Positions 8,709 through 39,300 of a stretch of DNA of 64,000 bases are shown piece after piece. Each line of letters starts with the position of its first letter. Position 1 is the stretch's first letter. Both the position numbers and the translations under genes were made by a program. Origin of the DNA: Chlamydiales bacterium (GTDB taxonomy: Bacteria; Chlamydiota; Chlamydiia; Chlamydiales; JAAKFR01); assembly GCA_022601445.1 (NCBI GenBank), contig JAJACP010000006.1, positions 50,069 to 114,068 of the forward strand, written 5' to 3'. Under the pieces are notes generated by a model. That model did not search any database. It was not told the DNA's origin and was given only the letters and a program-made list of their open reading frames with translations.

Positions 8709-9376
8709 AAAAAATCGGAAACGTGCCGAAACGGTCTCTCCATTTTACGGGAGAGCGTTTCAATTTCATGAGAAGTGAACATCTCGGTAACCAAAACAGC
8801 CTCAGCTTCCGTTCCTAAAAGAGCCTGCAAGCCCCTTGGCGAGTCCTCAAAACCCATGATCCGGTCCCCTTTCTCTCCTAATTGTGCAATCGCTTTTTCG
8901 TAACACTCCGAGGCCGGCTTGGGCTGCTGATAATCCTCGCGCGTGATCCAAACCGGGATCGTATTCAAGATCGCATGCTGAGAACGGATTACCTCTATTT
9001 GCTCGGCTGCTGAGTGGGTCACCACACACCGTTTGATGTGCGCCTGATCTAGTCCTTTAAGCAAATCTTCTACTCCCGGCATCAATTCTGTGCCTCGACT
9101 AAGGAGAAGACCTGAATAAGCCCGCTTTTTCTCTTGATAGAGAATATCCCAACACGGCTCATACCGGTAAAGATCAGGAAGTTCTTGGTAAAGCCCCTCT
9201 TTGAGCCCATCAGCAGAATACATCGCATGACGGATATAGGTAGACATGTCCCACTGAAGAGAAAATCCCCGGTCAGCACACATTTTTTTGTAGGCCAAAT
9301 AGTGAAGCTTCTCTGTATTCACAAGAATTCCGTCGAAATCAAAGAGAAAAAGTTGATAATCATGGATCCAATGCAT
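8675..9376 (-). CDS. HAD-superfamily phosphatase (Gph/beta-phosphoglucomutase type)
   Basis: 233 residues. Motif I is LFDFDGILVNTE near residues 11-22, motif II CVVTHS near 117, and motif IV FEDSPRGLQA near 177. Note that the usual DxDxT is DFDGI here, a common variant in this subfamily. The cap domain lies between motifs I and II. The position after truA matches the phosphoglycolate phosphatase gene of Chlamydia; substrate not determinable. Its ATG overlaps the ATG of the divergent lipoprotein gene within one ATGCAT palindrome at 9371-9376. Confidence 0.85.
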   Translation of the reverse strand: MHWIHDYQLFLFDFDGILVNTEKLHYLAYKKMCADRGFSLQWDMSTYIRHAMYSADGLKEGLYQELPDLYRYEPCWDILYQEKKRAYSGLLLSRGTELMPGVEDLLKGLDQAHIKRCVVTHSAAEQIEVIRSQHAILNTIPVWITREDYQQPKPASECYEKAIAQLGEKGDRIMGFEDSPRGLQALLGTEAEAVLVTEMFTSHEIETLSRKMERPFRHVSDFLNLAESGRIRQ

Positions 9377-10186
9377 GCTCGGTATTATAAACTTCTATTG
9401 CTATTTGTTCTACTTCTGGTTTCCGGCTGTTCTTCTGAGACAGTCAAAAAGAAGCACACCACCGTGAAAGGTGAATACCTCATTCGGCAGCATCATGAAT
9501 ATTTTTTTACTCCTCCACCTCCTCTCCCCCGCACACGGGAGACCTACCCTTGGGAAGATACCTATGTGGGCGGCTTTCCTCGGATTACAAAAGAATTTTT
9601 TCGCTGTAAAGGCAACCCCCTCAACCCTGTTGCGACTCAAGAACGGGAGGGAAAAGAGACGCTCTACTACAGAGACTGCCACGGAGGAAGGCGGCATGGC
9701 CTACCACTCAAAAATAATGAAGAATTTATCTATCCCTGCTTAATCGACTTGCTCAACTACATTCAAGAGCAAACCAGAATGCGCGTTGTAGTTACCACAG
9801 GACATCGCTGTCCGATTCACAACAGTTACTGTGATTATAGTTCCTACAACTGGGGTTCTAAGCACATGCTAGGTGCGGAGGTCGATTTTTACGTCGTGGG
9901 AATGGAAGAAAAACCAGAAGCAATTATCCAACTGGTGATGGACTACTACAAAGGAGATGCCGATTACGAAGTATTTACACGCTTTGAGCGTGGAAAGCTG
10001 AATGTATCCACTCCTCCCTGGTACAATAAAGAGATCTTTATCAAACTCTACCAAGCTCATGAAGGGCGTGATCACGACAATCAGCACCCCTATCCTTACA
10101 TCAGCATCCAGGTTCGGCATGACAAAGAAACGGGTAGCCGCGTCACCTTTACTCAAGAGCAAGCACAAAACTATTTGCGTCATTAG
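9362..10186 (+). CDS. Lipoprotein with M15-type D-Ala-D-Ala carboxypeptidase-like domain
   Basis: About 275 residues. The N-terminus (YYKLLLLFVLLLVSGC) is a lipoprotein signal with a lipobox ending in Cys. The later segment VTTGHRCPIHNSYC ... GSKHMLGAEVDF holds the S-x-H-x-x-G-x-x-x-D pattern that binds zinc in VanY/peptidase M15 proteins, so it may trim peptidoglycan crosslinks or stem peptides in the periplasm. The start could be the ATG at 9362 or 9371; a much longer frame from 9134 runs antisense through the HAD gene and is rejected. No clear Shine-Dalgarno is visible. Confidence 0.75.
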   Translation: MDPMHARYYKLLLLFVLLLVSGCSSETVKKKHTTVKGEYLIRQHHEYFFTPPPPLPRTRETYPWEDTYVGGFPRITKEFFRCKGNPLNPVATQEREGKETLYYRDCHGGRRHGLPLKNNEEFIYPCLIDLLNYIQEQTRMRVVVTTGHRCPIHNSYCDYSSYNWGSKHMLGAEVDFYVVGMEEKPEAIIQLVMDYYKGDADYEVFTRFERGKLNVSTPPWYNKEIFIKLYQAHEGRDHDNQHPYPYISIQVRHDKETGSRVTFTQEQAQNYLRH

Positions 10187-10241
10187 AGCAGACCTGTTAA
10201 ATCTAAATTAAAGTTTTTTTAATTAAATATATCAGGAAACC

Positions 10242-10811
10242 ATGAAGCTACTACTATTCGCTATTTTGATTTTATTCCCTTTATTTTTATCTGCTTATGA
10301 ACAAAACACTTATCAATACGAAGGAACAACTAGCGATGGTGCAACGGTTTACTTCGAGGGAAGAATGCCCAATGAGCACTCACAAGAAGCCATAAAAGAG
10401 CTACAAGAACGCTACCTTAGAGCGCCCAGAGATCACAGAGATCAGTACAAAATGGAACTTGAGAAAGGTTTTGGCATTTCCGTTACAGAAAAGAGATCTC
10501 CCAAGCATCCCCTTCAGGAACAATCCTCCCCTTCTCGGCCCAGTCAACAAAACCAAACCTATGCGTACAGTGAAGAGGGAACAGCGCAAGATGGAACTAC
10601 CGTACGGTTTTACGGAAGGTTACCGATCAATCAGGATCTAACAGAAATCCACGCGTTACAAAGACACTATTTAGAGGGCTCCGGATATAACAAGAAAGCC
10701 CTCCAAGATGCCTTCCAACGATTCGGTATTTCTGTCGAAGAAAGCCGACAGCAAATGAAAGTTTCTCCTCCTAAACACAAAGCCGTCCCTCACACATATT
10801 ACACGTATTAA
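10242..10811 (+). CDS. Exported RFYG-module family protein, two modules (member A)
   Basis: 189 residues with a Sec signal peptide (KLLLFAILILFPLFLSAYE). Two copies of a ~60-residue module follow: residues about 24-86 (TSDGATVYFEGR ... GFGISVTE) and 107-165 (AQDGTTVRFYGR ... RFGISVEE). Each has a DG-x-x-V-x-F-x-G start, a central Tyr/Leu-rich helix and a G-I-x-V-E end. It lacks the Arg/Gln tail of other members and ends in a Tyr-rich HTYYTY. It is the first of three co-oriented family genes. I do not recognise the family; function unknown. Confidence 0.8.
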   Translation: MKLLLFAILILFPLFLSAYEQNTYQYEGTTSDGATVYFEGRMPNEHSQEAIKELQERYLRAPRDHRDQYKMELEKGFGISVTEKRSPKHPLQEQSSPSRPSQQNQTYAYSEEGTAQDGTTVRFYGRLPINQDLTEIHALQRHYLEGSGYNKKALQDAFQRFGISVEESRQQMKVSPPKHKAVPHTYYTY

Positions 10812-10917
10812 GAGCAAAAGCTTGAAAAATGTGAGCCGCAATAGCAGCGGCAACTTGGGAGCGTTGGAAGAATTGAAAAGCTAAACCTGTTTTAGATTAT
10901 ACAACATCTGAGATTTT

Positions 10918-11355
10918 ATGAAGATACTGTTAACTACTTTATTTTTGTTTCCCTTGTTTTCATCTATTCAGGGAAACCAGCCCGAAACACGCCTAACAAC
11001 GGAGTGGCTTGAAGCCACGGTGAACCGCCCATATTCTTTTGGTGACAAGGGCGATACCGTGACTTTTACAGTGACGCCTAGGAATGTAAGAGCTGGAGAA
11101 GCTTTAGAGCTAGAGACATTGATGCTAGATTATTTAAACGCACTACACCTAGGTGCGAGCTCTTCTCAAAGGGCTCTTTACGAAAATGAGCTAAGAAAAC
11201 ATGGGGTCACTGCACAGATACAACGCGCACCAAGACAGCCTGCTCAACAGCCTCAAACACGCGAACAGCAAAGGCGCGCACAACGTGAAGCAAGGCGTGA
11301 GCGCATTCGCCAGCAACGCCAGCAGCAGCGCAACAATGATCCGACAACTTATTAA
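10918..11355 (+). CDS. Exported RFYG-module family protein, one divergent module plus Arg/Gln tail (member B)
   Basis: 145 residues: signal peptide with the family's LFPLFSSIQG pattern, one divergent module (about 30-103; DTVTFTV replaces the RFYG core, and it ends KHGVTAQIQR), then a basic tail from about 105 with EQQRRAQREARRERIRQQR. The tail DNA (11251-11321) is almost identical to that of the next gene. Function unknown; the tail could bind nucleic acid or polyanions, which is conjecture. Confidence 0.78.
   Translation: MKILLTTLFLFPLFSSIQGNQPETRLTTEWLEATVNRPYSFGDKGDTVTFTVTPRNVRAGEALELETLMLDYLNALHLGASSSQRALYENELRKHGVTAQIQRAPRQPAQQPQTREQQRRAQREARRERIRQQRQQQRNNDPTTY
11251..11321 (+). repeat. 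71-bp tail repeat, copy 1 (partner 11989-12059)
   Basis: Direct repeat encoding the start of the Arg/Gln-rich tail; by eye 67 of 71 bases match the partner in the next gene. The modules upstream of it are far more diverged. Confidence 0.85.
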
Positions 11356-11403
11356 CAATTAAAAGACATTAACAAAACAGAAACATTAAAATACTGAGGA
11401 TCT

Positions 11404-12078
11404 ATGAGAATATTATCCACCATTTTACTATTATTTCCCTTATTTTCATTCATTCAGGGAGATGAACCTGAGACGCGCTCGATAACGGAATGGTTAGGAA
11501 ACGATCTGGATCGCCCACTATCTTTTTATGATCATAGTGGTGACACCGCGATTTTTAGTGTTAGCAGGCCTAAGGATATAAGCCATGAGGAAGCTCAAGC
11601 GATACATGATCTAATTCAACTACTTCTAAGTGATGGTAGGCCCGATAAAAGGGCTCAATACGAAAATCAGCTAGCACAACACGGTGTCTCTGTATGGATA
11701 CAGCGCGGACCAAGACAGCCTGTTCAAGCACCTCAAAGCGAACCTGTCCAGCGTTATGGCAGCCGCTCTCAAACTCCACCACAAATAACGGGTGACTTCA
11801 CAAAAGTTACAGAAGATGGCATTAGGGTTCGATTCTACGGAACGTTTAATGCTGACCAGGAGCCACAAGTTCAGTGGCTAACAGAAAATTACCTTAAGGC
11901 CTTTAACAAACAAAATAGACCCTCTTACAGAAAAGAATTTGACAGGTTGGGCATTCGGGTAGAGGAAATGCCTCCTCCTGCCCAACAACCTCAAACATAT
12001 GAACAGCAAAGGCGCGCGCAACGTGAAGCAAGGCGTGAGCGCATTCGCCAGCAACGCCAACGTGAATTTGGAAAATAA
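11404..12078 (+). CDS. Exported RFYG-module family protein, two modules plus Arg/Gln tail (member C)
   Basis: 224 residues: signal peptide (RILSTILLLFPLFSFIQG), a first module like that of member B (DTAIFSVS ... QHGVSVWIQR), a second canonical module (about 133-193: TEDGIRVRFYGT ... RLGIRVEEM), then the tail EQQRRAQREARRERIRQQR. The gene looks like member B extended by a second module. A strong terminator follows 16 bases after the stop. Confidence 0.8.
   Translation: MRILSTILLLFPLFSFIQGDEPETRSITEWLGNDLDRPLSFYDHSGDTAIFSVSRPKDISHEEAQAIHDLIQLLLSDGRPDKRAQYENQLAQHGVSVWIQRGPRQPVQAPQSEPVQRYGSRSQTPPQITGDFTKVTEDGIRVRFYGTFNADQEPQVQWLTENYLKAFNKQNRPSYRKEFDRLGIRVEEMPPPAQQPQTYEQQRRAQREARRERIRQQRQREFGK
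11989..12059 (+). repeat. 71-bp tail repeat, copy 2
   Basis: Partner of 11251-11321; see that entry. Confidence 0.85.
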
Positions 12079-12093
12079 TCAACCGCTGGAAAA

Positions 12094-12125
12094 CCCGGCT
12101 GCTGAGGCAGCCGGGGTCTTTATTT
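12094..12125 (+). terminator. Rho-independent terminator after member C
   Basis: CCCGGCTGC (12094-12102), TGAG loop, GCAGCCGGG (12107-12115), then GTCTTTATTTT. The same CCCGGCTGC/GCAGCCGGG-type stem recurs behind members E and F on the other strand. Confidence 0.88.
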
Positions 12126-12202
12126 TAGCCCCCTAAAACTCCAAACTGATTGCGGTATTAGCCATTGATCAGTATAGTATGTTATCCTTTCCTTGCTTTT
12201 TT

Positions 12203-12286
12203 GCCGACGTGGTGGAATTGGTAGACGCGGTAGACTCAAAATCTACTCTTAGCAATAAGGTGTCGGTTCGAGTCCGACCGTCGGCA
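12203..12286 (+). tRNA. tRNA-Leu (anticodon CAA)
   Basis: Acceptor GCCGACG (12203-12209) pairs with CGTCGGC (12279-12285), discriminator A at 12286. Anticodon stem GTAGA/TCTAC encloses the loop CTCAAAA, so the anticodon is CAA. A long variable arm and GGTTCGAGTCC T-arm are present. CCA is not encoded. Confidence 0.95.
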
Positions 12287-12300
12287 TTCTTTTTTCTATA

Positions 12301-12688
12301 GAGGAAGCGAATGCTTATCTTCCCTTATTGATGACAGGCTTCAATAAAAGATTCAGCAGAGAGCCTGAGAAAAAAGAAGATACTCATCGCTGCCTTCCAC
12401 TTTGCAAGAAAGACCACTCGGAAGCTATCGAGAGAGCTCTCTTTTAGCTACGAAGGGATCGTCTATCATCTGGAGACCCAGAGTCCTAATCGAATTAGAA
12501 AGACCTATGTAGCGATTTTTTCAAGACCAAACCAACCCCTGATAGTAGAGATAGACGGAAAGCAGATGGAATACATAAGATGGAAAGAGGCGGCCTACAT
12601 GCGGGCCCCGGTCTTAGACAACAAACGGATAGATACCCTCTGGCGGTTTGCTCCCCCGAAAACAAACAAGAGGCATCCATGGAGGTAG
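12301..12688 (+). pseudogene. ISNCY-type transposase C-terminal remnant, frameshifted
   Basis: Translated from 12301, the frame reads EEANAYLPLLMTGFNKRFSR ... EKKEDTHRCLPL, then stops at TAG after AIERALF; one base shift restores FSYEGIVYHLETQ and continues through IDGKQMEYI to APPKTNKRHPWR and a stop at 12686-12688. A 'FNKRF ... HR.L' block, an 'LxYxxxxYxLE' block and an HPWR end are typical of the ISNCY-family C-terminus. The N-terminal two thirds with the catalytic core are absent; the remnant starts 15 bases after tRNA-Leu(CAA). The gene is dead. Confidence 0.75.
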
Positions 12689-12733
12689 AGTTACAAAAAG
12701 GTGACATTTTAATTTTGCGTTGACATGACAGAA

Positions 12734-12815
12734 TGCCGTCGCTCCAGCCCTCGGCTAACGACTCGACCGAAGGCGCGGCGCAAGCTCGCCGAAGTTACGC
12801 AACGGCTCGCACCTT
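12734..12815. repeat. GC-rich intergenic repeat, inverted relative to 13530-13582
   Basis: The reverse complement of about 12734-12782 (..GGTCGAGTCGTTAGCCGAGGG..) resembles 13541-13582 (..GGTCGAGGCGCTAGCCGAAGA.. then GGGGCGACGG). The adjoining GCTCGCCGAAG..ACGCAACGGCTCGC at 12786-12812 recurs with few changes at about 51014-51043. The 12689-12865 gap holds no gene; I see only this repeat, probably left by transposition. Confidence 0.55.
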
Positions 12816-12865
12816 CTAAGGGTTTTTCAACACAGCCTTACCTTTTCAGAGATCGTTGAAACAGG

Positions 12866-13408
12866 TCAGTTTAATTCTTCAACCTGCACACCTAGTCTAT
12901 TAAGTTCTTGTCTATAGTTGCTTCTCTGCTTCTTGTGCGTGGCTTTTAGATAACTTTGAGCCAGCCCCATAACTTGTGTTTCATAAGCAGAATTAATTGT
13001 TCCATGGAAACGGACAATAATGCCATCTTCGGTACGATGTAAGAAGTCGAGCGTTACTGGTGGGTGGGCTTTTTCAAGCGTTGCCGGCTGCTTTTGGACT
13101 TGTTCAGAAGAGGGGGGCTGTTTTCTCGAAGGGGTTCTTTCTACAGTAATACCATATGGTCTCAGCTGACGTTCGATTCGAGCTCGTTGATTTTCACGAA
13201 CATATATATATTTTGTTATCAAGTCGTGTACAGTAAGGTAGTACTGTTCATCACCTGATAACTCTCCATAAAAACGTACAGTACCGCTACCATCAGCTAA
13301 TTCAAAGGGACGATTTATCAATCCGCTATCTTGGGCGCCTGTCTGGTATCCATAGATATTCAAAAACAAGGGTAACAGGAGTAAAACAAGAAACAGCTTT
13401 TTCATCAT
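12866..13408 (-). CDS. Exported RFYG-module family protein, two modules, no tail (member D)
   Basis: 180 residues: signal peptide (KKLFLVLLLLPLFLNIYG), module 1 (about 30-92: GSGTVRFYGE ... PYGITVERT), a Pro/Gln linker, and module 2 (about 118-180: TEDGIIVRFHGT ... RLGVQVEEL), where the protein ends without the Arg/Gln tail. Module 2 is closest to module 2 of member C. It is on the opposite strand to members A-C and lies between remnants of two different transposases and a pair of inverted repeats. Start is the ATG at 13406-13408 or the adjacent ATG 3 bases in. Confidence 0.8.
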   Translation of the reverse strand: MMKKLFLVLLLLPLFLNIYGYQTGAQDSGLINRPFELADGSGTVRFYGELSGDEQYYLTVHDLITKYIYVRENQRARIERQLRPYGITVERTPSRKQPPSSEQVQKQPATLEKAHPPVTLDFLHRTEDGIIVRFHGTINSAYETQVMGLAQSYLKATHKKQRSNYRQELNRLGVQVEELN

Positions 13409-13529
13409 TCCTCAGCATTTTTAATTTTAAAGACTTTTATTTGCACATAGCAGTCTCAGTCTTTATAGGCTATAAAACATATTTTTCCGCCAAGGCTCGG
13501 GATGTGTTGCGCACCCTCTTCATAGAAGC

Positions 13530-13582
13530 AAGCTCCCGCCGCGTCTCGGTCGAGGCGCTAGCCGAAGACCGGGGCGACGGCC
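13530..13582. repeat. GC-rich intergenic repeat, inverted partner of 12734-12782
   Basis: See the entry at 12734. The two copies flank member D in opposite orientation, with about 750 bases between them. Confidence 0.5.
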
Positions 13583-13589
13583 TTATAAT

Positions 13590-13780
13590 CTTTGCGTCAC
13601 TGCAGTTTTCGAAAATAGCCTCTATCCAAAGAGACGCTTCACTCTCGAAAAAGCCGTCTCTACAAGTACCCTAACGCTATAGCCTGTAACCTTTCCCATA
13701 ACGATTTTGCCAGTTTGTCTCCCTCAAACCCTCGGATGATTCGTATCGTGTCATCTCTTTTTGAATCAATACCATGGGAC
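13590..13780 (-). pseudogene. IS5-type transposase C-terminal remnant
   Basis: Reverse-strand reading gives RDDTIRIIRGFEGDKLAKS then LWERL, and after a shift of one or two bases GYSVRVLVETAFSRVKRLFG, a stop, and RLFSKTAVTQ. 'W....GYS.R.LVETAFSR.K.LFG' is the C-terminal DDE region (the final Glu of the triad is in VETAF) of IS5-family transposases. At least one frameshift and one stop make it non-functional. This explains part of the 500-base gap between members D and ctcA-like gene at 13911; the rest of the gap shows nothing else. Confidence 0.7.
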
Positions 13781-13818
13781 TATTGAACAATTGTCCTTTT
13801 CGTTAGCTTTTGGAATTT
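13776..13818. repeat. Dispersed repeat GACTATTGAACAA.TGT, copy 1
   Basis: GGACTATTGAACAATTGTCC followed by TTTTCGTTAGCTTTTGG matches 39127-39166 with few differences. Both copies are near RFYG-family genes and copy 1 adjoins the IS5 remnant, so it is probably IS-derived. Confidence 0.6.
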
Positions 13819-13910
13819 GTACATAAAACTAAAGATACAGTAGTGCCGATGTCTATGTGGTCTTTTTTGTATTGCGTATAATTTTTTTCTCTCTATCGTA
13901 GAGGATACCT

Positions 13911-14234
13911 ATGGAAAACGAAAAACTGCTGCATCTCCTTAGAAAGAAAAAAGGCTTTTTTGAGACCATTCTTGACTTAACCGAGGAGGAACAAGAGCTT
14001 CCTGTCAGCGAGTGGATCTCTGTTTTAGAACAGAAAAAAATCCTCCTCTCCTGCATAGACGAGATCGACTCCGAGCTAAAGCCGTTTCAAAGCGCACTTC
14101 AACACCTCTCTCAAGAGATCTCTGAAGAGCTTGAGTCCATCCGAAAGGTCATCCGCACCATTCTCCACCTTGACACCAAAAACCAGAATAAACGGAAACA
14201 GGAGCTGAAGCTCGATGCAGGGAAACGAGACTGA
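13911..14234 (+). CDS. Helical protein upstream of ctcB, unknown function
   Basis: 107 residues, predicted almost wholly helical and charged (LLRKKKGFFETILDLTEEEQ, WISVLEQKKILLSCIDEIDS). The pattern of a helical bundle with a repeated 'EQKK.LL..I..ID' resembles FlgN-type export chaperones in shape only. It overlaps ctcB by 20 bases and so is probably translated with it; the corresponding Chlamydia gene (CT466) is also uncharacterised. Confidence 0.75.
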   Translation: MENEKLLHLLRKKKGFFETILDLTEEEQELPVSEWISVLEQKKILLSCIDEIDSELKPFQSALQHLSQEISEELESIRKVIRTILHLDTKNQNKRKQELKLDAGKRD

Positions 14235-36790: not shown

Positions 36791-37384
36791 TTAATTGAGA
36801 ATGATGTTACCGTCCGTTGTCTCAATTTCAAGAGTTAACACGATGGGAGCGGTCTCGGCAAGCTCATTTTGGTAGGTTTTTTTCAAAATGTGGAACCACC
36901 CCTGCTTTTTCAGCCCCTCTTTGGCAATGACCTTCCCTGTAGCAAAGGTTTTGGTATGAATAATCAACCCAACGTTCTCGGGTAGCTTCAAAGCAATATC
37001 TTCTTTTTCGCCACGAATGTTGAGCTGACAGCTCTTCTGCCAATTACCTGTAAGATCGAGCTGCATGGCGCAACTAGTGCACAAAAGGTTCACCAGAGTG
37101 AGTTCTGGATAATCTCCCGTGAGATCCCCGGTAAGGCTCCCAAAGCGCCCTTCATAATTGATAGATGTAAGGAGTGGATACACGCCGCTTAAATTAAACT
37201 CGACGCATTTTTTGCGACACGCATCAATATCGATATTTTCAAGATGGGGAAACTCCCCTGAAAAATCAAAGGTATCGACGCGACGAGTTTGCTTCCGGTT
37301 CTGGAAGGACTTTGCTGTGCGATCAGCAGAGAGTGCCCATAAAGGAGAGGCAAGTAAAAGAAGTAGGATCCAGACAAGTTTCAT
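36791..37384 (-). CDS. Exported beta-rich protein, start abutting tRNA-Leu
   Basis: 197 residues from the ATG at 37382-37384: signal peptide (KLVWILLLLLASPLWALSA) and a repetitive beta structure with FDFSGEFPHLENIDIDAC, FNLSGVYPLLTSINYEG, LTGDYPELTLVNL and LDLTGNWQ, i.e. about four 'SGxYPxLxxI' turns like a small beta-helix or DUF4097/toastrack domain. The frame extends upstream to 37492 but that stretch is the tRNA. The ATG begins one base after the tRNA discriminator base, leaving no room for a leader of its own. Function unknown. Confidence 0.8.
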   Translation of the reverse strand: MKLVWILLLLLASPLWALSADRTAKSFQNRKQTRRVDTFDFSGEFPHLENIDIDACRKKCVEFNLSGVYPLLTSINYEGRFGSLTGDLTGDYPELTLVNLLCTSCAMQLDLTGNWQKSCQLNIRGEKEDIALKLPENVGLIIHTKTFATGKVIAKEGLKKQGWFHILKKTYQNELAETAPIVLTLEIETTDGNIILN

Positions 37385-37385
37385 A

Positions 37386-37469
37386 TGCGAAAGGGGGGAC
37401 TTGAACCCCCAAGGAGTTTCCTCCACTACCACCTCAAGGTAGCGCGTATACCAATTCCGCCACTTCCGC
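37386..37469 (-). tRNA. tRNA-Leu (anticodon GAG)
   Basis: Acceptor GCGGAAG (from 37469) pairs with CTTTCGC (37387-37393, one G-U), discriminator A at 37386. Anticodon stem CTACC/GGTAG holds TTGAGGT, anticodon GAG. Long variable arm and GGTTCAAGTCC T-arm are present. CCA not encoded: the base after the discriminator is T, then ATG of the next gene. Confidence 0.95.
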
Positions 37470-37630: not shown

Positions 37631-37795
37631 ACTTAAAGAAAACTAACGTCTAAAATTCACACCAAGTATTACCACGTTGCTAACGTTGTTGCTGACGTTG
37701 TTGCTGACGTTGTTGCTGACGTTGTTGACGGATACGATTACGTCTTGCTTCACGCTCTGCACGTTTTTGTTCTTCGTAAGAAGGTTGAGCTTGAG
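37608..37795 (-). repeat. ~188-bp repeat: 3' end of member E plus downstream hairpin (partner 38458-38633)
   Basis: Covers the hairpin, 3' UTR and Arg/Gln tail of member E and is nearly identical to the same part of member F; the main difference is one extra 12-base QQRQ-coding unit here. Confidence 0.88.
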
Positions 37796-38294
37796 ATGGT
37801 TGCCCTCCAGAGTCTGGAAACTCAGTAACCTCAATCCCTAGTTCATTAAGATCTTTTTTGTAAATAGGTCTATTTACCTTATAATCAGTCTGCTGGTAAT
37901 TTGTTATTTTATTCCTAATCAATGTTAAGTCTTTAGGATCTTGATATTGTCCATAAAAATGAACAGGAATACCGTCTTTAGTCGTGTGCCACTCGTTAAT
38001 AATTAAATGATCAATTCTTATGCCGTAGTTTTTCAAGTTTTGTTCGATCTCGGGTCTACGTCCAGCGTTTTGGGATGCCGTATACTGATCTACAAGTGCT
38101 TCGATATGAGATTTATCATTAGGGTCATAATTTCCATAGAAGCGAAGCACGAGGCCATCTTCAGTGACCCCAACACCATCAACAAACTTTTTTTGACTTT
38201 GCCTCGACCTTGGCTCTTCTAGATAAGAGGTGTTGTTTCCATAAACTGGCAAAAATAAGGGAGATAAGATTAGTACTAAAATCAGTTTTTTCAT
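37680..38294 (-). CDS. Exported RFYG-module family protein, two modules plus QQR tail (member E)
   Basis: 204 residues from the ATG at 38294 (GAGAGG upstream). Signal peptide KKLILVLILSPLFLPVYG, module 1 (about 42-103: TEDGLVLRFYGN ... NYGIRIDHL), module 2 (about 104-160: TKDGIPVHFYGQ ... ELGIEVTEF), then SYEEQKRAEREARRNRIRQ and a run of QQRQ units. The tail DNA contains tandem 12-base repeats (37683-37730). Very similar 5' leader and 3' end to member F. Function unknown. Confidence 0.8.
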   Translation of the reverse strand: MKKLILVLILSPLFLPVYGNNTSYLEEPRSRQSQKKFVDGVGVTEDGLVLRFYGNYDPNDKSHIEALVDQYTASQNAGRRPEIEQNLKNYGIRIDHLIINEWHTTKDGIPVHFYGQYQDPKDLTLIRNKITNYQQTDYKVNRPIYKKDLNELGIEVTEFPDSGGQPSQAQPSYEEQKRAEREARRNRIRQQRQQQRQQQRQQQR

Positions 38295-38457: not shown

Positions 38458-38633
38458 CCCGGCTGCCTAAAGCAACCGGGACTTAAAGAAAACTAACCTG
38501 TAACATTCACACCAAGTATTACCATATTGCTAACGTTGTTGCTGACGTTGCTGCTGACGTTGTTGACGGATACGATTACGTCTTGCTTCACGCTCTGCAC
38601 GTTTTTGTTCTTCGTAAGAAGGTTGAGCTTGAG
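38458..38633 (-). repeat. Partner copy of the 188-bp repeat, 3' end of member F
   Basis: See 37608-37795. Contains the hairpin at 38458-38480 (CCCGGTTGC/GCAGCCGGG on the minus strand). Confidence 0.88.
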
Positions 38634-38964
38634 GTTGAGATTGAGGTTGAGGTTGAGACGGTCGACCGTCAAGATATTCAACCTTTATACCATAGCTTTT
38701 CAAGCTTTGTTCGATCTCGGGTCTAAGTTGAATGTTTTTGTGTTCCACATACTGGTTTACAAGTTCGTATATGCGACTCTTATCATGAACGTTTGCATTT
38801 CCATAAAAGCGAACTCTGTGCCCCTCTTCAGTCTCTTCCTGAAAATCATGAGACACCATTTCTTGGCTTGGCCACGACCCCAGATCCACTAGACCAGAAT
38901 CTCCATTTCCATAAACATTTAAACATAAGTGAGATAATACTATCGCTAAAATCAGTTTTTTCAT
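38530..38964 (-). CDS. Exported RFYG-module family protein, one module plus QQR tail (member F)
   Basis: 144 residues from the ATG at 38964, which sits in the same TAGATCCTCT context as member E's start; the frame upstream to 39015 is leader. Signal peptide KKLILAIVLSHLCLNVYG, one module (about 40-98: TEEGHRVRFYGN ... SYGIKVEYL), then a PQPQSQPQAQ linker and the tail EEQKRAEREARRNRIRQQR. It corresponds to member E with the second module removed. Confidence 0.8.
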   Translation of the reverse strand: MKKLILAIVLSHLCLNVYGNGDSGLVDLGSWPSQEMVSHDFQEETEEGHRVRFYGNANVHDKSRIYELVNQYVEHKNIQLRPEIEQSLKSYGIKVEYLDGRPSQPQPQSQPQAQPSYEEQKRAEREARRNRIRQQRQQQRQQQR

Positions 38965-39126: not shown

Positions 39127-39300
39127 GGACTATTGAACAACTGTTCTTTGCGTCAGCTTTTGGGGATTTTGCTTTTAGTTTTTCGATCTTGAGCGTGGGC
39201 TTCTGCAAGAGGTACGCCGAGCAAAAGATCGAAAAAATAGAACGAAATCAGCCAAAAGACAGATCAAAGACCGACTTTTTCAATGATCCCATATTTACAA
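39127..39300. repeat. Dispersed IS-like repeat, copy 2, in the gap before yidD
   Basis: GGACTATTGAACAACTGT..CAGCTTTTGG (39127-39166) matches 13776-13818. AAAGACCGACTTTTTCAA at 39265-39282 is an inverted copy of TTGGAAAGTCGGTCTTTGA at 38433-38451, so members F and its leader lie between inverted copies. The 364-base gap 38965-39328 holds no gene that I can support. Confidence 0.5.

What the first reader, a model, noticed from the sequence alone, without database searches (positions are those of the whole stretch)
10242..13408. Unrecognised family of exported proteins built from a ~60-residue RFYG module (six genes in two clusters)
Six genes (10242, 10918, 11404, 12866, 37680, 38530) encode proteins with near-identical signal-peptide style (..L.PLF...YG/QG) and one or two copies of a module of the pattern T-E-D-G-x-x-V-R-F-Y-G, then Tyr/Leu helix, Arg/Lys, and G-I-x-V-E. 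Members differ in module count (1 or 2) and in the presence of an Arg/Gln-rich tail (E-A-R-R-E/N-R-I-R-Q-Q-R). Two members have no tail and end in the module or a Tyr-rich end. I know no family with this pattern. Export plus rapid copy change suggests surface or host-facing proteins; the basic tail might bind nucleic acid or polyanions. Function is conjecture, the family itself is seen in the sequence.
Basis: partly seen in the sequence, partly recalled or inferred. Interest (0 to 1): 0.75.

Follow-up and report, generated by a model that had tools for sequence, protein, structure and literature searches.

The report
Orphan chlamydial exported RFYG-module protein family
One uncultured relative of Chlamydia carries nine genes (one a broken remnant) built from a roughly 60-residue protein module that matched no family in the libraries searched; most are predicted to be exported, six sit in two gene slots that are empty or otherwise filled in the relatives examined, and they are likely fast-changing proteins that face the bacterium's host.

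Summary
The window has six genes with ten copies of a ~60-residue module; 14 of 14 copies tested (10 window, 4 elsewhere in the genome) are recognised by a profile of the others, far above shuffles. Searches of the window's own genome (an uncultured Chlamydiales bacterium) added two intact module genes, one truncated remnant and one gene with only the basic tail: 16 module matches in nine genes, five tails. No credible copy appeared in 231 other genomes of the phylum; among 5.8 billion proteins only one further relative, with one module. Pfam, NCBIfam, PHROGs and PDB sequences gave no significant match. AlphaFold2 gives a confident ββααβ domain (pLDDT 92.4) without significant structural match. 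At the two window sites, beside tRNA-Leu genes, same-genus genomes lack the genes (site 1: G002; site 2: G001, G002). In the two youngest gene pairs the modules differ most and the tails least; tails of different clusters keep their protein sequence despite saturated synonymous change. Best reading: exported, likely host-facing modular proteins with a variable binding domain and a constrained cationic helix. The family is shown; export, ligand and tail role are inferred.

The parts
10242..10811 (+). Member 1: signal-peptide-like start, two modules, Tyr-rich end, no basic tail (189 aa)
10314..10499 (+). module 10242a
10566..10751 (+). module 10242b
10918..11355 (+). Member 2: signal-peptide-like start, one diverged module, Arg/Gln tail (145 aa)
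11035..11232 (+). module of 10918 (weakest copy in the leave-one-out test)
11404..12078 (+). Member 3: signal-peptide-like start, diverged first module, canonical second module, Arg/Gln tail (224 aa)
11518..11709 (+). module 11404a
11788..11976 (+). module 11404b (best profile match; the row folded)
12094..12115 (+). GC-rich hairpin with T-rich 3' side after 11404, terminator-like; a similar GC-rich hairpin sequence follows 37680 and 38530 but was not scored as a terminator
12202..12287 (+). tRNA-Leu(CAA); in G002 it lies 31 nt from the gene that ends at 10186 here
12866..13408 (-). Member 4: signal-peptide-like start, two modules, no tail (180 aa)
13124..13309 (-). module 12866a
12869..13054 (-). 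module 12866b
13777..13813 (+). fragment of the palindromic repeat, 369 nt from member 4
37386..37469 (-). tRNA-Leu(GAG); in G001 and G002 it lies 52 and 53 nt from yidD (gene name recalled)
37680..38294 (-). Member 5: signal-peptide-like start, two abutting modules, Arg/Gln tail predicted as one long helix (204 aa)
37998..38183 (-). module 37680a
37815..38000 (-). module 37680b
38530..38964 (-). Member 6: signal-peptide-like start, one module, Arg/Gln tail (144 aa)
38659..38844 (-). module of 38530
39127..39290 (+). imperfect palindromic repeat with matches at 13 places in the genome (15 rows merged), about 160 nt from member 6

Best explanation
Nine genes of one uncultured chlamydial genome, one of them a truncated remnant, form an orphan family built from one or two copies of a ~60-residue module predicted to fold as ββααβ; eight of them begin with a likely Sec export signal, four end in a conserved Arg/Gln-rich stretch predicted to be a long cationic helix, and the module is likely a fast-changing binding unit that faces the host. 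Proposed working: the proteins are likely exported through Sec; the module likely acts as a small binding domain for a host-side or cell-surface partner, and likely changes fast because that partner changes; the tail would hold the protein on a polyanionic surface (lipopolysaccharide, nucleic acid or host polyanion). New copies would arise by duplication of signal-module-tail cassettes and by gain or loss of modules between conserved ends, in intergenic slots that differ between species. Shown by calls: the module family, its restriction in the collections searched, the variable slots at the two window sites, and the contrast between conserved tails and diverged modules in two gene pairs. Predicted: fold, helix, export. 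Inferred: partner binding, host contact, the tail's role, the route by which copies arise.
For: Homology of modules: 14 of 14 leave-one-out; the C1 gene 27.1 bits without being in the profile. Own genome: 16 module matches in nine genes (that profile contains all of them, so this is a count, not a test), five tails. N termini: in the eight module genes with an intact 5' end, a net charge of +1 to +3 precedes a hydrophobic 12-mer of mean Kyte-Doolittle 2.41-3.22. Fold: module pLDDT 92.4, pTM 0.76, strands 2-7 and 13-18, helices 22-37 and 41-53, strand 56-61; full-length 37680 (pLDDT 84.2, pTM 0.56) shows two such units and a helix 173-203. Tail: five tails with net charge +6 or +7; the mature part before the tail has pI 5.1-6.1 in four of four module proteins with a tail. 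Constraint on the tail: 11404 vs 37680 tails pN 0.12, pS 0.99 (22 codons). Modules differ more than tails: 37680/38530 tail 60/60 nt identical, 3' flank 63/68, 5' flank 51/59, signal 48/60, module 115/165; 10918/11404 tail 69/75, signal 44/60, module 121/189; module dN/dS 0.73 and 0.88, against 0.12 for the 10918/11404 tail. Slots: 2,015 nt between the gene ending at 10186 and tRNA-Leu(CAA) in the window, 31 nt in G002; 1,859 nt between tRNA-Leu(GAG) and yidD in the window, 52 and 53 nt in G001 and G002.
Against: No direct evidence of secretion, expression or any partner. The 95% bootstrap of pN-pS spans zero for both young module pairs, so positive selection is not shown; relaxed constraint or module swapping explains the pattern equally. 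Other module pairs look constrained: 12866b/11404b dN 0.37, dS 1.71; 12866a/C13a 0.89, 2.19; 12866b/C13b 0.40, 0.66. The signal segment of 10918/11404 is constrained in protein but well diverged in nucleotides (44/60), and the 5' flanks of that pair did not align (7 nt). Tail-less members exist, so the tail is not needed for whatever the module does; the C1 and tail-only C36 proteins are acidic overall. No signal-peptide predictor was available; the outside relative P0005 has a lipobox-like LFSC where the window proteins have none, so membrane anchoring in some members is open (by eye). All comparisons are between species except possibly P0005, whose contigs I could not read.
Confidence: 0.4

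Rival explanations
1. Periplasmic or cell-envelope housekeeping proteins private to this species: the module binds another envelope component and there is no host contact; divergence reflects weak constraint after duplication.
For: Signal-like N termini without any further targeting feature seen in the window proteins; dN/dS below 1 in every pair where both rates could be estimated, and the bootstrap for the young module pairs includes neutrality.
Against: A housekeeping part would be expected in sister species; none was found in the two same-genus genomes or credibly in 231 other genomes of the phylum.
Confidence: 0.27
2. Cargo of a mobile element or genomic island (for example interbacterial-competition immunity or anti-phage genes) moved with the palindromic repeat and inserted beside tRNA-Leu genes.
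For: The palindromic ~160-nt repeat lies within 1.2 kb of 4 of 6 family loci although only 13 places in 1.93 Mb match it (binomial P 4e-6; 5e-5 at 500 nt with 3 of 6, 2e-5 at 2 kb with 4 of 6; cut-offs chosen after seeing the data); in the family it is found in 2 of 10 genomes, this one and a diverged form in G005, not in G001 or G002; a truncated IS110-type transposase lies about 1.1 kb from the C22 gene.
Against: No phage or plasmid match for P0005, no viral contigs relative of 11404, no significant PHROG. The C1 and C36 loci have no repeat near. Intergenic slots would collect both repeats and new genes without a causal link. Signal-like starts do not suit cytoplasmic immunity or defence. 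Integrases were not searched for and PADLOC was not run.
Confidence: 0.15
3. An exported enzyme or nuclease (the best sub-threshold Pfam hit of 37680 is EndoU_bacteria) or a small inhibitor domain.
For: EndoU_bacteria E 0.013 in one of ten members.
Against: 16.3 bits against a gathering score of 25.3, and 1 of 10 members matches; the columns conserved at 90% or more are G, F, L, Y and G, with no His, Cys, Ser, Asp or Glu among them.
Confidence: 0.06
4. Spurious or decaying ORFs kept open by chance.
For: C13 is a 5'-truncated remnant, so decay does occur.
Against: Eight other module genes are open; older comparisons show pS well above pN; the family alignment gives a confident fold.
Confidence: 0.03

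Closest known systems
Species-specific predicted outer-membrane/envelope proteins of Chlamydiae (PMC2811131; passages seen)
   Same: Predicted export, not assigned to any orthologous cluster, rapid evolution proposed, possible link to host spectrum
   Different: There they are listed as proteins outside any cluster; here nine genes of one genome share one small module in variable number plus a separable tail
Expanded ubiquitination-related gene families of Parachlamydiaceae (PMC4209131; search listing and start of abstract only)
   Same: Lineage-specific paralogue expansion in environmental chlamydiae
   Different: Those families carry domains of known kind; this module has no known homologue
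SPFH domains (stomatin, prohibitin) and ribosomal small-subunit chains (eS1, name recalled)
EndoU_bacteria (PF14436)
   Same: Weak local profile match in one member
   Different: Below gathering score, 1 of 10 members

Membership tests
Sec-exported protein | positively charged n-region followed by hydrophobic core | tested here: met
   eight of eight module genes with intact 5' end; charge +1 to +3, 12-mer mean hydropathy 2.41-3.22; C13 lacks its 5' end
Sec-exported protein | signal peptidase cleavage and actual export | not testable with these tools
   no predictor or experiment; -3/-1 residues such as V-Y-G or I-Q-G judged by eye only
Lipoprotein | lipobox with Cys at +1 | tested here: inconclusive
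   read by eye: no L-x-[GAS]-C box in the eight proteins of this genome (nearest: TVC in C1); but the outside relative P0005 reads LFSC
Chlamydial Cys-rich envelope proteins (recalled) | Cys-rich mature domain | tested here: not met
   0 Cys after residue 20 in eight of eight module proteins, 1 in the tail-only protein
Pmp autotransporters | PMP middle domain | tested here: not met
   ChlamPMP_M best E 0.15 in 1 of 10 members, not significant
EndoU_bacteria PF14436 | profile match above gathering score | tested here: not met
   16.3 vs 25.3 bits, 1 of 10 members
SPFH domain | SPFH fold | tested here: inconclusive
Inc proteins | bilobal hydrophobic domain and type III secretion | not tested
   not scanned
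Phage or plasmid cargo | relatives in phage, plasmid or viral records | tested here: not met
   P0005 tblastn in plasmids and phages: none; 11404 in viral contigs: none; PHROGs on six proteins: best E 0.033. Other members were not searched there

The most novel reading that the evidence does not exclude
A new protein family, and possibly a new small fold, has arisen and spread within a single chlamydial species as exported cassettes: fixed export signal, interchangeable ββααβ binding modules, fixed cationic helix; it is reshuffled in tRNA-flanking slots together with a palindromic repeat and serves as a variable host-facing repertoire.
Probability: 0.25. Interest if true: 0.65.

Novelty: new variant of a known kind. 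Interest (0 to 1): 0.5.

Why it matters
Chlamydiae have many species-private predicted envelope proteins whose origin is unclear (PMC2811131, passages). Here a private family can be taken apart: the module folds confidently in prediction, the tail is a separable constrained part, and the sites without the genes are visible in sister species. That makes it a tractable case for how obligate intracellular bacteria gain new exported protein families, and gives a compact domain whose structure and partner can be found by ordinary experiments.

Tried and rejected

Distant relatives: the phylum-wide profile search gave four other genomes at E 0.005-0.007 (G036, G047, G079, G127); 232 genomes at E 0.01 would give about 2.3 by chance, and two of the four matches contain a stop. 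P0006 (C1 gene) gave one weak match in the phylum besides itself (E 0.005 with a stop). The family-level search with the widened profile gave only E 0.2-0.3 in G001 and G005. The tail-only protein found no relative outside this genome in 232. The genome-contig scan with P0005 confirmed none. Literature: four searches, whose listings show no paper on this family; one paper seen in passages.

Site 1 could not be tested in G001 (neither flanking gene found). Positive selection was tested and not shown. A first cut of the segment comparison placed some boundaries differently, giving the 10918/11404 tail 0.81 identity; with motif-set boundaries replaces it. Promoter and terminator scans: no clear excess over shuffles. 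Rfam on 10000-14000: only the tRNA.
Full report
What is there. Cut into modules, they give ten copies in the window. Profiles built with one copy left out recover 14 of 14 copies tested (ten in the window, two in each of two other loci), at 23.7-70.8 bits against 5.1-12.5 for the best of 300 shuffles of each. The alignment (14 rows) has five columns at 90% or more: G, F, L, Y and G.

More members. Searches of the window's own genome (G000, 1.93 Mb, 37 contigs, the window being C34:50069-114068) found a two-module gene on C22, a divergent gene on C1 with one full and one partial module, a 5'-truncated remnant on C13, and a C36 gene with a signal-like start and the basic tail but no module. The C1 gene first appeared at E 0.0099; scored alone with a profile that lacks it, it reaches 27.1 bits, the best of 1000 shuffles 8.1. 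In all: 16 module matches in nine genes (a profile that contains them) and five tails. The C13 remnant matches 12866 over its second module (72% over 180 nt) and over the end of its first module (90% over 41 nt), with further module sequence between.

How far it reaches. In 232 genomes of the phylum the module profile gives five at E 0.01 or better: this one (best 9.5e-26) and four at E 0.005-0.007, where chance would give about 2.3. The two same-genus genomes have none at the thresholds used, and only E 0.24-0.30 in G001 with the widened profile. Among 5.8 billion proteins, one search with a single member and two with family alignments returned P0005 and otherwise proteins that I take, by sequence or by length and contig length, for this genome's own. 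P0005 is a 149-residue protein (two members, nine contigs, sources ncbi and lgn). It scores 83.8 bits against the 14-module profile. It has one module, closest to 11404b (45 of 63 identical), an N terminus closest to 10918 (19 of 25) and a tail closest to 11404 (26 of 30): the same parts in a different arrangement. No match in phages or plasmids for P0005 or in viral contigs for 11404.

Where it sits. The first three genes lie between a conserved gene ending at 10186 and tRNA-Leu(CAA), with 12866 beyond the tRNA; cluster 2 lies between tRNA-Leu(GAG) and yidD (name recalled). In G002 the first interval is 31 nt (window 2,015), and beyond the tRNA stand unrelated genes: a methyltransferase-like gene and a YchJ/deformylase fusion. 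The second interval is 52 nt in G001 and 53 nt in G002 (window 1,859); in G005 a 268-codon ORF without visible resemblance to the family fills it. So five of the six window genes occupy the 5' side of a tRNA-Leu gene, in slots that vary between species. ARAGORN found no tRNA in the stretches read around the C13 and C22 members; C1 was not scanned.

The repeat. A palindromic repeat of about 160 nt (fold z -3.9 against shuffles) matches at 13 places (15 rows merged) and lies within 1.2 kb of 4 of 6 family loci: 369, about 160, 22 and 1,113 nt; C1 has none on its contig and C36 none within 59 kb. Binomial P is 4e-6 at that cut-off, 5e-5 at 500 nt, 2e-5 at 2 kb, all chosen after seeing the data. 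In the family 2 of 10 genomes have a match, this one and a diverged form in G005. Whether it moves the genes or merely shares the slots is open.

How the parts evolve. For 37680/38530: tail 60/60 nt identical, 3' flank 63/68, 5' flank 51/59, signal 48/60, module 115/165. For 10918/11404: tail 69/75, signal 44/60, linker 30/51, module 121/189; their 5' flanks did not align. Module dN/dS is 0.73 and 0.88; the 10918/11404 tail is 0.12; tails of the two clusters (11404 vs 37680) keep their protein sequence (pN 0.12) while synonymous sites are saturated (pS 0.99). The bootstrap of pN-pS includes zero for both module pairs, so adaptive change is not shown. Other module pairs show more constraint (12866b/11404b dN 0.37, dS 1.71; 12866b/C13b 0.40, 0.66). 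Cassette duplication, module exchange between conserved ends, or relaxed selection on modules would each give this pattern.

Interpretation. Signal-like N termini, restriction to one species in the collections searched (P0005 apart), variable slots, variable module number and conserved tails fit an exported, host-facing modular family. The tail is under purifying selection and strongly basic (+6 or +7) behind an acidic body (pI 5.1-6.1, four of four), so a polyanion-binding anchor is the simplest role, but no ligand is shown. P0005 has a lipobox-like LFSC, so some relatives may be lipid-anchored. PMC2811131 (passages) describes species-specific predicted outer-membrane proteins of chlamydiae that may reflect host range; this family would be a modular case of that kind.

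Limits. One genome per species is held; the first-pass filter of the genome search may miss very diverged copies; no signal-peptide predictor was at hand; P0005's contigs could not be read; integrases were not searched for and PADLOC was not run.

Noticed in passing
window 39127-39290; fragment at 13777-13813; 11 other places in the genome: Imperfect palindromic, MITE-like repeat within 1.2 kb of 4 of 6 RFYG loci; no match in two same-genus genomes, diverged form in G005.
   Followed up: partly
L024:2468-4315 (G000:C22), next to the C22 family member: A 616-aa animal-haem-peroxidase-domain protein (PF03098, E 3.5e-115); unusual for this phylum as far as I recall.
   Followed up: no
L024:352-696: Truncated IS110-type transposase (PF01548, E 5.1e-12) about 1.1 kb from the C22 family member.
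   Followed up: no
L025:908-1966 (G000:C36): Protein matching Legionella_OMP (PF05150, E 1.3e-22) beside the tail-only gene.
   Followed up: no
window 12335-12688: 117-codon open stretch that looks by eye like a mobile-element remnant between tRNA-Leu(CAA) and member 4.
   Followed up: no
window 36791-37390 and 9356-10183: Conserved neighbours of the two slots (the first seen by eye in G001, G002 and G005; the second in G002, G003 and G005) without any Pfam match at E 0.01.
   Followed up: partly
P0005, residues 13-16: Lipobox-like LFSC in the only relative outside this genome, absent from the window proteins.
   Followed up: no
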